From Listeria welshimeri serovar 6b str. SLCC5334 (GTDB lineage: Bacteria > Bacillota > Bacilli > Lactobacillales > Listeriaceae), in NCBI RefSeq assembly GCF_000060285.1, contig NC_008555.1, positions 1,426,001 through 1,490,000 of the forward strand: 64,000 nt of DNA, written 5' to 3'. The position numbers and the translations under genes are program-made. The notes beneath the pieces were generated by a model. The model ran no database searches and was not told the origin of the DNA. It was given only the letters and a program-made list of their open reading frames with translations. Numbering within the stretch: position 1 is the stretch's first letter; each line of letters begins with the position of its first letter. Positions 28,912 to 38,600 of this stretch are shown one piece after another.

Positions 28912-29712
28912 ATGAATATTTTTAAACGCTTCTGGAAGAGCCTATATTCCCCTGCGGATATAGCATCGTTTCGAAATGATAAAATCAGAAAAAGTATTGT
29001 TTACATTATTGTTTTATCATTTGTAACCTTTCTTCCATTGGCATACTTTACAAACGTTACTACAAAAAATGCGCTTAAAGTTGGCGAAGAAACAATCACA
29101 AAAGAAATTCCTGATTTTAATGTGAAGGATGGCAAATTAGTTCTAACAGATGATTCAGTGAAAAACATTCCTATCTCTATTGATCAAGATCAACTACATA
29201 TTTACTTTGATGCTTCTGGGACTCTTGATAAAGATGATGTAGATAATAAAATAGCTTCTTATGATAGTGCAGTAGCTTTTCTTTCTGATAGTATTTACTT
29301 CACTGCTGCAGGCGTATCACAGTCCATTAGTTATGACACTGCTGGAATTAGTAATAAAGCAGATTTAGTTGATTTATATACATCGATTGAGTCACTGGCT
29401 AAATACTTTATTCCAATTGCGTTACTTATACTTTTCCTCTTTACTCTTGGGTCTATTTTCTTCCGAGTAGCGCTTTATTCATTATTTGGATTTATCCTTT
29501 CTGGTTTTGGACGCACTGGCATTTCTTTCCGTCAAAACTGGATGATGGCTTCCTACAGTATTACACTTGCTGCTGTTTTTACAATGGTAATGGAAGCACT
29601 TCAAGTAGTTGTACCGTTTGGAATGGAAATAAATATGGTTGTTAGTATGATCTTTGTTTTCCTTGCGATACGAACTATTCCACCAAGCGAACCCACTATT
29701 TTAGAAAAATAA
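28912..29712 (+). CDS. DUF1189 family membrane protein
   Basis: A 266-residue protein. A helix near residues 30-48 is followed by an extracellular region of about 110 residues rich in Asp/Lys, then three or four membrane helices from about 155 to the C-terminus (FIPIALLILFLFTLGSIFFRVALYSLFGFIL onward). The N-terminal FKRFWKSLYSPADIASFRNDKI is typical of DUF1189 proteins. Function is unknown. A GAGGTG ribosome site lies 11 bases before the ATG, slightly long. It equals lmo1440 by position. In L. monocytogenes the next gene is ispG, which is missing here. Confidence 0.75.
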   Translation: MNIFKRFWKSLYSPADIASFRNDKIRKSIVYIIVLSFVTFLPLAYFTNVTTKNALKVGEETITKEIPDFNVKDGKLVLTDDSVKNIPISIDQDQLHIYFDASGTLDKDDVDNKIASYDSAVAFLSDSIYFTAAGVSQSISYDTAGISNKADLVDLYTSIESLAKYFIPIALLILFLFTLGSIFFRVALYSLFGFILSGFGRTGISFRQNWMMASYSITLAAVFTMVMEALQVVVPFGMEINMVVSMIFVFLAIRTIPPSEPTILEK

Positions 29713-29718
29713 AACTGA

Positions 29719-29749
29719 ACCACTTGTACTCTTTGCAAGTGGTTTTTTT
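29719..29749 (+). terminator. terminator of the DUF1189 gene
   Basis: Arms ACCACTTG and CAAGTGGT followed by seven T. Confidence 0.88.
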
Positions 29750-29781
29750 GCATAAATTCAAGTGATTTTACGAGGGAAAAA

Positions 29782-29790
29782 TGGTATGAT
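29782..29790 (+). promoter_or_regulatory. extended -10 promoter of azlCD
   Basis: TGG followed by TATGAT (29785-29790), about 73 bases before azlC. The -35 is weak. Confidence 0.45.
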
Positions 29791-29828
29791 AAAAAAATAT
29801 TATTCTTTGATTGCTCGTGTTTTAGATT

Positions 29829-29853
29829 GGAGTATGGACTCCTAATAAGGAGG
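29829..29853 (+). promoter_or_regulatory. azlC leader: competing hairpins and mini-ORF over the ribosome site
   Basis: GGAGT (29829-29833) can pair with ACTCC (29838-29842), while CTCCT (29839-29843) can pair with AGGAG (29848-29852), part of the azlC ribosome site. The two hairpins are mutually exclusive. The tiny frame ATG GAC TCC TAA TAA (29834-29848) ends at the ribosome site. Confidence 0.4.
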
Positions 29854-29862
29854 AATTTTCTT

Positions 29863-30570
29863 ATGGAAAAGAAAGTAGAGCTAAGTTTTTATGATGGAGT
29901 TAAAGCATGTTTACCAACTGTGCTTGGCTATGTTGGTATTGGAATTGCTGCTGGTGTTGTGAGCAAAGCTTCTCATTTAAGTGTCTTAGAAGTTACACTG
30001 CTTGCAATTATTGTCTATGCAGGAGCTGCCCAATTTATTATTTCTGGATTATTACTTTTACAGAGTCCGATTTCAGCTATTATTTTTACTACTTTCTTAA
30101 TTAATTCTAGGCATTTTTTGATGAGTATGGCGGAAGCTCCTTATTTTAAGAAATACTCACTTTGGAATAATATTGGGATTGGCGCCCTTCTTACAGATGA
30201 AACATTTGGTGTATCAATGAATCAGATTGGTAATAAAAAACCAGTTAGTGCGAAATGGATGCATGGTATTAATGTGACCGCTTATTTGGCTTGGATTATA
30301 GCTTGCATCATTGGCGCATTTGTTGGCAATTGGTTGCCTAATCCTGAACAATTCGGGCTTGACTTCGCTCTAACAGCGATGTTTATTGGTTTGCTTTATT
30401 TGCAAGTTGTGAGTGATAAAAGTAAAAGAATCGCTACAAGTTTATTTGTTATGTTGATGGTAGCTATATTTTTAATTCTATTTATGCGTGTGATGACACC
30501 TGAACTTGCTATATTGGTTTCGACGTTACTTGGATGTCTGATGGGAGTGATAGTAGAAAAATGGCGATAA
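29863..30570 (+). CDS. azlC: AzlC family branched-chain amino acid exporter subunit
   Basis: Large subunit of the AzlCD-type (LIV-E) exporter, which in relatives exports branched-chain amino acids or analogues. The 235-residue protein has about seven to eight membrane helices and the PF03591 N-terminal core YDGVKACLPTVLGYVGIGIAAGVV followed by GAAQFIISGLLLL and FLINSRHFLMSMAEAPYF. The ATG at 29863 is chosen because AAGGAGG sits 9 bases upstream; the in-frame ATG at 29827 has no ribosome site. It overlaps azlD by 10 bases, confirming co-translation. The natural substrate in Listeria is not known. Confidence 0.88.
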   Translation: MEKKVELSFYDGVKACLPTVLGYVGIGIAAGVVSKASHLSVLEVTLLAIIVYAGAAQFIISGLLLLQSPISAIIFTTFLINSRHFLMSMAEAPYFKKYSLWNNIGIGALLTDETFGVSMNQIGNKKPVSAKWMHGINVTAYLAWIIACIIGAFVGNWLPNPEQFGLDFALTAMFIGLLYLQVVSDKSKRIATSLFVMLMVAIFLILFMRVMTPELAILVSTLLGCLMGVIVEKWR

Positions 30571-36019: not shown

Positions 36020-37327
36020 TTATCGTTTTTTCCGTCTTTCACGACGTTTAATTTCATTCATTTTGTAATTAATTTTCTTTTTATAGTTTGGTTTGCCTTT
36101 TTGTTTTGCTTTTTTACGCATACCAATCTCACGTGGATCAGCTGTTTCTCGTTTAGCTTCACGTTTTGCACGACGATTTCGATCTTCTAGCGTAACGAAT
36201 TCTTTATTTTTCCAGTCAACATGCTTAAATTCAATACCCATTTTTTCTAACTGGTTTAGACGATCTTCGTCTGCTGGTTCAAATAAAGTCAGTGCTATAC
36301 CAGAATGTCCGGCACGACCTGTTCGACCAGTACGGTGAATGTAGAAATCGAGGTCATCTGGTAACTCATAGTTTACAACATGACTAATTCCTTGAATATC
36401 AATACCACGAGCAGCTAAATCTGTCGCAACCACATATTGATAATCTAAGTTTTCGATTTGTTTCATAGTCCGTTTACGTTCACGAGGATTTACGTCACCA
36501 TGAATTTTGGCTACTTTTAGACCACGTTCAGTTAAGCCGTTTGCTACTTCATCAGCCGTTGTTTTTGTATTTGTAAAAACAATCGCTAAATAAGGTTGCG
36601 AACCAACTAGCACATTTTTAAGTAAATCTAATTTATCTCGGCTACGAGTTGCCATAATACGGTGTTCCACTGTTTTTGAAGCAGCAACTTTTGGTTGAAT
36701 ATGTTCATAACGCGGATTTTCCATATATTTGCTTAAAAATGGTTTTAATTTTTGTGGGATGGTTGCGGAAAAAACAAGCATTTGTAGATTAGCTGGCATT
36801 TTTCCAGCAATATGGTCGACATCGTTTAAGAAGCCCATATCAAGTGTCATGTCTGCTTCATCAATAACTAATGTTTTAGCAGTATGCACAAATAAGGCTT
36901 GCTCACGAATTAAGTCATTAATACGACCAGGCGTTCCAACAATGATTTGTGGTTGTTTTTTTAGTTTATCAATCGCACGTTGTTTATCCGTACCACCAAT
37001 AACAAGTTGCACAGCGATTTCTTTTTCGCTGAATTTTGTCACTTTGCGAATTTCATTATAAATTTGAGTAGCAAGCTCACGACTTGGTGCCGTAATAACT
37101 GCTTGTACTGCATCTTTTTCAGGATTCACATTGTTAATAATTGGCAAAATAAAAGTATGGGTTTTCCCTGTACCTGTTTGCGATTGGCCAATGATACTTT
37201 CCCCTTTTAAAATGCCTGGTATTAGCTTTTGTTGTACTTCTGTTGGCTCATAGAATCCTAATTTATCTATTGCAAGTCCAATAAAAGGTTGAAAGCCAAA
37301 TTGGTCAAACCTTGATTTCTTCGTCAT
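36020..37327 (-). CDS. cshB: DEAD-box RNA helicase CshB
   Basis: ATP-dependent RNA helicase, 435 residues. Motifs in order: Q motif region FGFQPFIGLAIDKLGFYEPTEVQ, Walker A SQTGTGKT (49-56), PSRELA, DEAD (156-159), SAT, and HRTGRTGRAG, then a very basic C-terminal tail rich in Arg and Lys. Neighbourhood (trmK-nif3 upstream, nfo downstream) identifies it as CshB, linked in relatives to growth in the cold and mRNA turnover. I use the ATG at 37327 (GGAGTGG upstream); a frame open for another 69 codons upstream spans the promoter and is rejected. Confidence 0.92.
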   Translation of the reverse strand: MTKKSRFDQFGFQPFIGLAIDKLGFYEPTEVQQKLIPGILKGESIIGQSQTGTGKTHTFILPIINNVNPEKDAVQAVITAPSRELATQIYNEIRKVTKFSEKEIAVQLVIGGTDKQRAIDKLKKQPQIIVGTPGRINDLIREQALFVHTAKTLVIDEADMTLDMGFLNDVDHIAGKMPANLQMLVFSATIPQKLKPFLSKYMENPRYEHIQPKVAASKTVEHRIMATRSRDKLDLLKNVLVGSQPYLAIVFTNTKTTADEVANGLTERGLKVAKIHGDVNPRERKRTMKQIENLDYQYVVATDLAARGIDIQGISHVVNYELPDDLDFYIHRTGRTGRAGHSGIALTLFEPADEDRLNQLEKMGIEFKHVDWKNKEFVTLEDRNRRAKREAKRETADPREIGMRKKAKQKGKPNYKKKINYKMNEIKRRERRKKR

Positions 37328-37361
37328 AAAATATTTCCACTCCGTTCTATACCTAGTAGCC

Positions 37362-37370
37362 ATTATAGCA
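37362..37370 (-). promoter_or_regulatory. extended -10 promoter of cshB
   Basis: Minus strand TGC directly before TATAAT, about 35 bases upstream of the cshB start. The -35 is weak. Confidence 0.55.
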
Positions 37371-37432
37371 CATATTAGGTCATTCGTGCGCGCTATAAGA
37401 CAACTTTGTTGAAACAATCCATTATACTCATT

Positions 37433-37474
37433 AAAAAACCGACTATCCTCATTTTTAAAAGAATTGTCGGTTTT
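37433..37474 (-). terminator. terminator of trmK-nif3
   Basis: Arms AACCGAC and GTCGGTT with AT-rich inner pairing and a minus-strand T run, immediately after nif3. Confidence 0.78.
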
Positions 37475-37478
37475 GTTA

Positions 37479-38600
37479 TTAACAAAATTGGAAAGGATCT
37501 GTATTGACTTCAGAAACAATAAATTCTGCTTCATAGTCTAAAATTTTTGCTTGTTCTTCCATTTTGTTTTTCAAGTAGCCCTTCATTACTTTCTCAATGT
37601 TATGTCCAGCATCAATTGTTGGTAAGTTGATGGCTAGTAAATCATGTGCAGTGTGATAATACACATCTCCAGTAATAAAAACATCTGCTCCGGTTGCTTT
37701 TGCTTGATGAATAAATTTATTTCCATCCCCACCAATAATTGCTACTTTTTGTACATTTGCTTTTAAATCACCAACATAACGTACATTATCAATTGCAAAA
37801 GCCGTTTTTAATTTGTCGATAAAGGAAACCATATTAATTTTTTTGGGTAAATTGCCTACACGACCAAGACCTTCTTTATAAGTCTGTGTTTCTAGCGTGT
37901 AAACATCCATTGCTGGTTCTTCATAAGGATGAGCAATTTTAACTGCTTTTGTAATGATTTCTGTTAAATATTCTGGAAAAATTGCTTCTATTTTCACTTC
38001 AGGAATAGAGGTCAGTGTTTCTTTTTCTCCGATAGTTGGATTCGCATCAGCACCTGGTTTAAAAGAACCCATCCCGGTTGTGTGGAAAGTACATTCTGTG
38101 TAATTTTCTCCAATTTGTCCTGCACCATTATTTACAAGTGCTAAACGCACAGATTCTAATTCGTTTTCAGGCACATAGACAGCAATTTTACAATATGGTT
38201 CTGAGTATGTTTCTTCAATCATTGTCGTATCTTGCAGTTGGAGTAAATCTGCCAATATGTCATTTACTCCACCTTTTGCAACATCCAAATTTGTATGTGC
38301 AGCAAACACGGTAATATCATGTTTAATCAACTTTTTGATCATTTTACCTTGTTTTGTTGTTGTATCAATATGTTGTGTTGGGTGGTATAAAAATGGATGA
38401 TGCGCAATAATTAAATCCACCTTTTTTTCGATGGCTTCATCAACGACTTCTTCTAAAACATCTAAGGTAAACATAACTTTTCTTACCTTTTTGGATAAAT
38501 CACCTACTTGGAGTCCGATGGGATCATTTTTCATTGCTAATTTTTTAGGAGCAATTTTTTCCATTATTGCTGTGTATTCATAACCATTTGCGACTTTCAT
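37479..38600 (-). CDS. Nif3-like dinuclear metal centre hexameric protein
   Basis: A 373-residue YqfO-type member of the Nif3 family (GTP cyclohydrolase 1 type 2-like). Metal-binding His residues are in LIIAHHPFLYHPTQH near residues 62-76 and in DAGHNIEK near the C-terminus. Between the two halves is an insertion of about 100 residues (YCKIAVYVPENELESVRLALV to YEEPAMDVYTLE) resembling a PII/CutA-like domain, which distinguishes Bacillota YqfO from short Nif3. Biochemical role is uncertain; some relatives were linked to cell wall or metabolic phenotypes. It overlaps trmK by four bases (ATGA). Confidence 0.88.
   Translation of the reverse strand: MKVANGYEYTAIMEKIAPKKLAMKNDPIGLQVGDLSKKVRKVMFTLDVLEEVVDEAIEKKVDLIIAHHPFLYHPTQHIDTTTKQGKMIKKLIKHDITVFAAHTNLDVAKGGVNDILADLLQLQDTTMIEETYSEPYCKIAVYVPENELESVRLALVNNGAGQIGENYTECTFHTTGMGSFKPGADANPTIGEKETLTSIPEVKIEAIFPEYLTEIITKAVKIAHPYEEPAMDVYTLETQTYKEGLGRVGNLPKKINMVSFIDKLKTAFAIDNVRYVGDLKANVQKVAIIGGDGNKFIHQAKATGADVFITGDVYYHTAHDLLAINLPTIDAGHNIEKVMKGYLKNKMEEQAKILDYEAEFIVSEVNTDPFQFC

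What the first reader, a model, noticed from the sequence alone, without database searches (positions are those of the whole stretch)
37328..37478. ispH (lytB) missing between nif3 and cshB
Both L. monocytogenes (lmo1451) and B. subtilis have ispH between the nif3-like gene and cshB. Here cshB has its own extended -10 promoter in a 150-bp gap ending at the nif3 terminator, with no ispH remnant. Loss of the second late MEP gene, about 8 kb from the first loss, shows two independent, pathway-directed deletions rather than one event. The pattern matches what is known for L. innocua and helps identify the organism.
Basis: partly seen in the sequence, partly recalled or inferred. Interest (0 to 1): 0.75.

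Follow-up and report, generated by a model that had tools for sequence, protein, structure and literature searches.

The report
Tail-first loss of isoprenoid pathway
This Listeria genome has lost the genes for the last three steps of one isoprenoid (MEP) pathway but keeps the first four intact, so those four enzymes likely do another job that is still unknown.

Summary
ispH is absent between nif3 and cshB and from the whole 2.81-Mb genome; ispG is absent 7.5 kb away. The genome, probably L. welshimeri SLCC5334, keeps dxs, dxr, ispD and ispE and has a complete mevalonate gene set. So it is not the L. innocua pattern, which keeps ispF. Of 25 Listeria genomes, 9 lack ispG and ispH, always both; 5 of those 9 also lack ispF; none lacks the first four genes. 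Promoter debris of ispH and ispG remains in the gaps. Scars differ between lineages, so the losses are largely parallel. In one genome ispG decayed in place while its ispH scar matches another lineage, as if imported by recombination. In four ispF-less genomes the four remaining genes have omega 0.04-0.09, no more relaxed than nine control genes. That argues against the published view that Listeria keeps the partial pathway to make MEcDP, at least for these five genomes. ispG/ispH loss in some Listeria is already known; the ispF loss, the constrained stub and the imported scar look new as far as I could search.

The parts
37328..37478 (.). Deletion interval where relatives carry ispH (on the + strand)
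   Evidence: 151 bp here (154 by the measure); 1189-1190 bp between cshB and nif3 in seven ispH-bearing sensu stricto relatives
37362..37370 (-). cshB extended -10 promoter element TGCTATAAT, older than the deletion
   Evidence: identical in 15 of 15 sensu stricto genomes, with or without ispH
37406..37428 (+). Debris of the ispH promoter (TTGTTG-11 nt-TATACT; relatives TTGTCA-17 nt-TATACT)
   Evidence: direct comparison with 7 ispH-bearing relatives
37433..37475 (-). nif3 terminator hairpin; in relatives it directly follows the ispH stop codon
   Evidence: fold -17.9 kcal/mol, z -4.4; position in relatives; not reported by the simple scanner
36020..37327 (-). cshB, DEAD-box helicase
   Evidence: PF00270 and PF00271
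37479..38600 (-). nif3-like gene
   Evidence: PF01784
29713..29862 (.). Deletion interval where relatives carry ispG (+ strand), between the DUF1189 gene and azlC
   Evidence: about 150 bp here, 1256-1258 bp in six of seven ispG-bearing sensu stricto relatives (1547 in G016, which holds runs of N); PF04551 absent from the genome
29782..29790 (+). Retained ispG extended -10 element TGGTATGAT, now upstream of azlC
   Evidence: same element upstream of ispG in relatives; position read
28912..29712 (+). DUF1189 gene, left neighbour of the ispG site; terminator-like hairpin at 29717-29745
   Evidence: PF06691; hairpin
29863..30570 (+). azlC, right neighbour of the ispG site
   Evidence: PF03591
190..1368 (+). 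mvaS, HMG-CoA synthase of the mevalonate pathway
   Evidence: TIGR01835, 553 bits against cut-off 360

Best explanation
This genome carries no recognisable ispH, ispG or ispF gene, keeps intact dxs, dxr, ispD and ispE, carries a complete mevalonate gene set, and likely makes its isoprenoids by the mevalonate route alone. At the ispH site a deletion removed everything from just after the ispH -10 box to the terminator shared with nif3, leaving the promoter debris and the older cshB promoter (shown by comparison with relatives). ispG and ispF were lost at their own, separate sites (shown). Across Listeria the erosion is nested and runs from the end of the pathway inward: ispG and ispH always go together, ispF is lost only where both are gone, and the first four genes are never lost (shown for 25 genomes). 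The likely cause is redundancy with mevalonate (inferred): constraint on ispG and ispH is already relaxed in relatives that still have them (shown as elevated omega). The four-gene stub is kept by purifying selection (shown for the ispF-less clade), so it likely still makes a phosphorylated methylerythritol product, at most CDP-ME 2-phosphate, that has a non-isoprenoid use (inferred, identity unknown).
For: Absence: PF02401, PF04551 and PF02542 have no match at E 0.001 in G000; dxs, dxr, ispD, ispE are present, each over an NCBIfam cut-off. Mevalonate: mvaS, mvaA, mvaK1, mvaD, mvaK2 and idi-2 over cut-offs; a strong mvaS match (68-88 bits) in 18 of 25 genomes, including 9 of 9 that lack ispG/ispH, while 7 of 7 without it keep ispG/ispH. 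Nesting: ispG and ispH absent in the same 9 of 25; ispF absent in 5 of 25, all within those 9. Scars. Relaxation before loss: omega in six full-pathway relatives of this genome divided by omega in distant Listeria is 4.2 for ispG and 1.93 for ispH, against 0.12-0.81 for nine control genes; PMC13001223 (passage) calls IspG of L. monocytogenes defective. Stub constraint: omega 0.080, 0.042, 0.087, 0.038 for dxs, dxr, ispD, ispE in four ispF-less genomes; ratio to the full-pathway group 1.04-1.50, control median 1.52, range 0.9-2.0. Residues invariant in eight distant Listeria are changed about as often in five ispF-less as in full-pathway genomes: ispE 6-7 against 6-7, dxr 11-13 against 11-13, ispD 2-4 against 2-3, dxs 27-39 against 28-45, the last inflated by a deletion. 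In 198 genomes of the order, 42 have dxr over cut-off and 37 of these have ispF; the five exceptions are these five Listeria.
Against: No metabolite, transcript or growth data; the stub's product and use are inference. One genome per species was seen. omega in the ispF-less group is above the full-pathway group for all four genes (1.04-1.50 by ML; 1.3-2.2 by counting), though the controls rise as well. The full-pathway/distant ratios of the other MEP genes (ispF 1.62, dxs 1.45, ispE 1.12, ispD 1.06, dxr 0.82) also lie above the control range, so the relaxation is a gradient along the pathway and not confined to ispG/ispH. A non-homologous IspF, IspG or IspH cannot be excluded. The age of the ispF loss in the ispF-less clade rests on parsimony and a partly shared scar; in G021 the scar has eroded further. 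For G000 itself the age of the ispF loss is not known.
Confidence: 0.8

Rival explanations
1. The stub is merely not yet lost: the ispF, ispG and ispH losses are recent and the four upstream genes are decaying or held by their operons.
For: The genes lie beside likely essential neighbours (essentiality is recall): uppS, a cdsA-like gene (below its cut-off), dxr, rseP; a farnesyl-diphosphate synthase gene, dxs, tlyA; ispD, gltX. One genome per species was examined. For G000 alone the loss could be recent.
Against: In the ispF-less clade (mean synonymous divergence 0.7-1.0 in the four genes) all four ORFs are intact in 4 of 4 genomes and omega is 0.04-0.09. Operon position explains keeping a stretch of DNA, not keeping residues. 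A 100-gene clock puts the L. seeligeri/L. ivanovii split near 20 million years (PMC3019230, section read); that these species are among G013, G015 and G021 is recall.
Confidence: 0.15
2. The published MEcDP model holds here too: the partial pathway is kept to make MEcDP as stress signal or antioxidant, and an unrecognised enzyme or spontaneous chemistry replaces IspF.
For: MEcDP is proposed as the reason why L. innocua keeps a partial pathway (PMC11192765, PMC13001223, passages read). Four of the nine ispG/ispH-less genomes do keep ispF, with omega 0.040 in three of them.
Against: ispF is absent from 5 of 25 Listeria genomes, four of them single contigs of 99% or more completeness; first-look candidates there were scored and none reached E 0.001.
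Confidence: 0.2
3. The ancestor of Listeria sensu stricto had lost ispG/ispH, and the clade with L. marthii and L. cossartiae regained them by recombination, so the gap is the ancestral state and not a loss in this lineage.
For: At one site next to cshB eight of eight, and at two more seven of eight, ispH-less sensu stricto genomes share a base that seven of seven with ispH lack. By count of events one loss plus regain would be few steps.
Against: ispG and ispH of that clade are separated from all sampled distant Listeria by a well supported branch and sit inside no sampled donor group; they sit at the same place as in outgroup Bacillaceae; G020 carries an ispG remnant in G019-like flanks; the ispF scars differ.
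Confidence: 0.08

Closest known systems
Listeria innocua truncated MEP pathway (Begley 2004 and 2008, not read; as described in PMC11192765 and PMC13001223, passages read)
   Same: ispG and ispH absent, mevalonate pathway present, early MEP genes kept
   Different: L. innocua is reported to go as far as MEcDP, with IspF; this genome has no ispF, so its pathway can reach at most CDP-ME 2-phosphate
L. monocytogenes lineage III (PMC3556495, passage read): non-mevalonate isoprenoid genes among 45 genes kept in 13 of 14 lineage I and II strains and absent from both lineage III strains
   Same: loss of MEP genes within the genus; G020 may be such a genome, though the tool gives it no name
   Different: the passage does not say which genes; G020 keeps ispF, has an ispG remnant and an ispH scar shared with the farberi group
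Partial MEP pathways beside mevalonate in Enterococcus and Streptococcus (PMC13001223, passages read)
   Same: mevalonate-bearing bacteria with an incomplete MEP pathway
   Different: in the 198 genomes of the order searched, no genome outside Listeria had dxr over cut-off without ispF
L. welshimeri SLCC5334 genome (Hain 2006, not held; title seen in the reference list of PMC3556495)
   Same: most likely the same genome: 2.81 Mb in PMC3019230; exact length from recall
   Different: whether that paper lists these gene losses could not be checked

Membership tests
L. innocua-type partial MEP pathway ending at MEcDP | ispG and ispH absent genome-wide | tested here: met
   no PF04551 or PF02401 match in G000
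L. innocua-type partial MEP pathway ending at MEcDP | ispF present, so MEcDP can be made | tested here: not met
   no PF02542 match in G000; ispD runs straight into gltX
L. innocua-type partial MEP pathway ending at MEcDP | dxs, dxr, ispD, ispE present and intact | tested here: met
L. innocua-type partial MEP pathway ending at MEcDP | MEcDP detected in cells | not testable with these tools
   needs metabolomics
Mevalonate-dependent isoprenoid synthesis | complete mevalonate gene set (mvaS, mvaA, mvaK1, mvaK2, mvaD) plus an IPP isomerase | tested here: met
   six proteins over NCBIfam cut-offs
Gene loss by clean deletion | no coding remnant at the ispH site | tested here: met
   score 23, reached by 18 of 60 shuffles; promoter debris only
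Gene loss by clean deletion | no coding remnant at the ispG site | tested here: inconclusive
   score 27, reached by 1 of 60 shuffles; about 11 nt around the ispG start may survive

The most novel reading that the evidence does not exclude
Five Listeria genomes, this one included, run a four-enzyme MEP stub (Dxs-Dxr-IspD-IspE) that cannot end in MEcDP or isoprenoids and is held by strong purifying selection: a methylerythritol-phosphate nucleotide (CDP-ME or CDP-ME 2-phosphate) is itself the wanted product, a non-isoprenoid use of the pathway for which I found no description. In addition, a gene deletion (the ispH scar) moved between Listeria lineages by homologous recombination, so gene loss itself spread horizontally.
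Probability: 0.4. Interest if true: 0.78.

Novelty: new variant of a known kind. Interest (0 to 1): 0.52.

Why it matters
Two recent articles (PMC11192765, PMC13001223) explain the partial MEP pathway of Listeria by MEcDP signalling. Five Listeria genomes keep the first four enzymes, under undiminished constraint in the four where this could be measured within a clade, although they have no known enzyme for making MEcDP. That makes the question of what the early MEP enzymes do outside isoprenoid synthesis directly testable in a non-pathogenic species by deleting single genes. The nested order of loss and the different scars give a natural series of pathway erosion under redundancy, and one scar that appears to have travelled by recombination.

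Tried and rejected
Tried: a shuffle test for coding remnants; none at the ispH site, borderline at the ispG site. Reading frames: my first extraction ignored the strand of the loci and gave wrong lengths for those on the minus strand; it was redone, and I use only the ispD-gltX stretches of + strand loci. Codon models: the first run (GY2K) printed no omega and a later one used an invalid model name; the values used are (ML; counting). Counting gave larger ratios for dxr and ispE (2.0 and 2.2) than ML; controls in that call ranged from 1.0 to 2.6, except zurR (about 10, from very few changes), which I left out. The mvaS family also rings in E. coli and, weakly, on a second 317-aa gene in Listeria, so I count only matches of 68 bits or more.

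Dropped before counts: G001 and G007 (broken reading frames) from the tree; G016 (runs of N) from the omega groups and from ispD/ispE; G111 (dxr match below cut-off, no ispF) from the order count. The trees leave the place of G000 open (support 90 with G005 and G012 in the protein tree; 40 and 85 for another placement in two nucleotide trees), so losses of ispG/ispH in G000 and in G005/G012 may be one event or two.

Rejected: one single deletion for ispG and ispH (nine genes lie between the sites); a hidden ispH elsewhere; the L. innocua identity (ispF absent; genome size). Species names: only farberi, marthii, cossartiae, immobilis and grayi come from calls (contig lengths; marthii by coordinates, its listed length differs by 100). 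Other names, and the labels sensu stricto and monocytogenes clade (the clade that holds marthii and cossartiae), are recall or inference. Names of neighbouring genes such as nfo, ppaC, zurR, trmK and rpoD come from recall of the L. monocytogenes order; cshB, nif3, azlC, azlD and DUF1189 were checked by Pfam.

Literature: 10 searches (one search listed 20 of 25). No listed title or abstract start, and no passage that I read, concerned ispF loss in Listeria or an imported ispH scar. Begley 2008, Lee 2020 and Hain 2006 are not held; Begley 2004 I did not look up. Novelty is therefore not proven.

Full report
What was checked. The window is bases 1,426,001-1,490,000 of a single 2,814,130-bp contig. 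That size fits L. welshimeri SLCC5334 (2.81 Mb in the strain table of PMC3019230; the exact length is recall). cshB (36020-37327) and nif3 (37479-38600) are 151 bp apart, with no ispH between them. PF02401 has no match in the genome, while the same search rings in 10 of 14 control genomes. ispG (PF04551) is absent as well; its site is 29713-29862, between the DUF1189 gene and azlC, about 7.5 kb from the ispH site.

Relatives. Of 25 Listeria genomes searched, 16 have ispH and 16 have ispG, the same 16 (the G001 ispH match holds three stops). In 16 of these 16 and in 4 of 4 outgroup loci (Alkalibacillus, Salirhabdus) ispH lies between the nif3 and cshB homologues, so presence is ancestral. In ispH-bearing sensu stricto genomes ispH points away from cshB and towards nif3, starts from a TTGTCA-17 nt-TATACT promoter and ends directly at the hairpin it shares with nif3 (7 of 7). 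In this genome the promoter survives as TTGTTG-11 nt-TATACT and the terminator follows within a few bases. The extended -10 of cshB is identical in 15 of 15 sensu stricto genomes, so the loss is predicted to leave cshB transcription as it was.

ispF (PF02542) is also absent. In this genome ispD ends and gltX begins 14 bp later, where relatives have a 157-codon ispF. dxs, dxr, ispD and ispE are matched in 25 of 25 genomes, although some matches in draft genomes are broken by contig ends or frameshifts (G001, G006, G007, G016). The innocua-type state, ispF without ispG/ispH, is in 4 of 25: G005 (L. farberi), G009 (L. grayi), G012 and G020. The published account of a pathway that stops at MEcDP (PMC11192765, PMC13001223, passages read) therefore does not describe this genome.

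Isoprenoid supply. mvaS is in the window at 190-1368. mvaK1, mvaD, mvaK2, mvaA and type 2 IPP isomerase were found in other stretches of G000, and all six proteins score over their NCBIfam cut-offs. A strong mvaS match (68-88 bits) is in 18 of 25 Listeria genomes, including all 9 without ispG/ispH; the 7 genomes without it all keep ispG/ispH. Loss happens only where mevalonate can cover it.

Independent events. The ispF scar of G000 lies after the ispF stop codon, whereas G013 and G015 keep the last bases of ispF and G011 part of the spacer after it, so these look like different deletions. In a published 100-gene study most methods place L. welshimeri outside the seeligeri/ivanovii clade, but only the Bayesian tree with strong support, and parsimony puts it inside (PMC3019230, section read); my trees keep G011, G013, G015 and G021 together without G000 at 98-100% in the two control-gene trees. 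For ispG, G005 and G012 keep a short piece around the start, G000 only the promoter and at most a few bases, and G020 a longer remnant of both ends with in-frame stops. I describe that remnant only.

A travelling scar. G020 and G019 are sisters with 99-100% support in the three multi-gene trees; single-gene trees give 40 (dxr), 83 (ispD) and 99 (ispE). G019 has ispG, ispH and ispF; of these G020 has only ispF. At 766 sites that separate the farberi group (G005, G012) from the G017-G019 group, G020 has the G019-like base almost everywhere: outside 37360-37510 the counts are 707 against 27, with 12 others. Inside that 150-bp stretch over the ispH scar they are 0 against 18, with 2 others. Without the terminator it is 0 against 10, with 1 other. 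Fisher's test gives 2e-24, but sites are linked, so it is only a guide. Three of the sites are shared with most or all other ispH-less genomes and may be ancestral; five are private to G020, G005 and G012. Four of the 18 lie where the alignment against ispH-bearing genomes is uncertain. The best reading is that G020 received the ispH deletion by homologous recombination from the farberi-like lineage, while its ispG decayed in place. Loss of MEP genes in L. monocytogenes lineage III is known (PMC3556495, passage read); that G020 belongs there is my guess.

Selection. ML omega for ispG and ispH in six full-pathway genomes (G002, G003, G017, G018, G019, G023) is 4.2 and 1.93 times that in distant Listeria; nine control genes give 0.12-0.81. 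The other MEP genes lie between (ispF 1.62, dxs 1.45, ispE 1.12, ispD 1.06, dxr 0.82), so the relaxation is a gradient that is steepest at the end of the pathway. For the four-gene stub in the four ispF-less genomes omega is 0.080, 0.042, 0.087 and 0.038, that is 1.04-1.50 times the full-pathway group, against a control median of 1.52 (0.9-2.0). The counting method gives 1.3-2.2. Positions invariant in eight distant Listeria are changed about as often in ispF-less as in full-pathway genomes. The stub shows no sign of decay. In 198 genomes of the order (searched with a completeness floor of 95%), 42 have dxr over cut-off and all but these five Listeria also have ispF.

Mechanism, shown and inferred. 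Shown: absence of ispH, ispG and ispF by profile search; deletion borders; nested order; relaxed terminal genes; constrained stub; full mevalonate gene set. Inferred: mevalonate redundancy as the cause; mevalonate as the sole source of isoprenoids; a product of the stub, at most CDP-ME 2-phosphate, with a use outside isoprenoids. I have no evidence on what that use is.

Novelty. ispG/ispH loss in Listeria is known. In the searches named under Tried and rejected I saw nothing on ispF loss in these species, on constraint of the remaining genes or on an imported ispH scar, but key subscription papers were not readable here.

Noticed in passing
L207-L212 (dxs of G023, G003, G018, G016, G017, G002): dxs in these six genomes gives 625-aa frames and lacks a block around profile positions 203-230; G019 and G020 keep it, and G011 has a smaller gap.
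   Followed up: partly
G020 ispG site (L221, between the DUF1189 gene and azlC): A decayed ispG remnant with both ends and in-frame stops, in flanks like those of its sister G019.
   Followed up: yes
window 29782-29862: The old ispG promoter now lies directly upstream of azlC and may drive azlCD.
   Followed up: no
L213, L214, L215 (G004, G010, G006): A second dxs-like gene of about 590 aa in three distant Listeria genomes; the G006 match holds one stop.
   Followed up: no
order-wide: 14 of 198 genomes have ispF but no PF02670 (DXR-I) match; they may use DXR-II or keep ispF alone.
   Followed up: no
L225 and other G016 loci: Runs of N and extra segments inside ispG and beside ispD in the L. 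marthii draft; probably scaffolding artefacts.
   Followed up: no
Seven of 25 Listeria genomes lack a strong mvaS match and keep ispG and ispH, so the genus splits into MEP-only, both, and mevalonate with a partial MEP pathway.
   Followed up: partly
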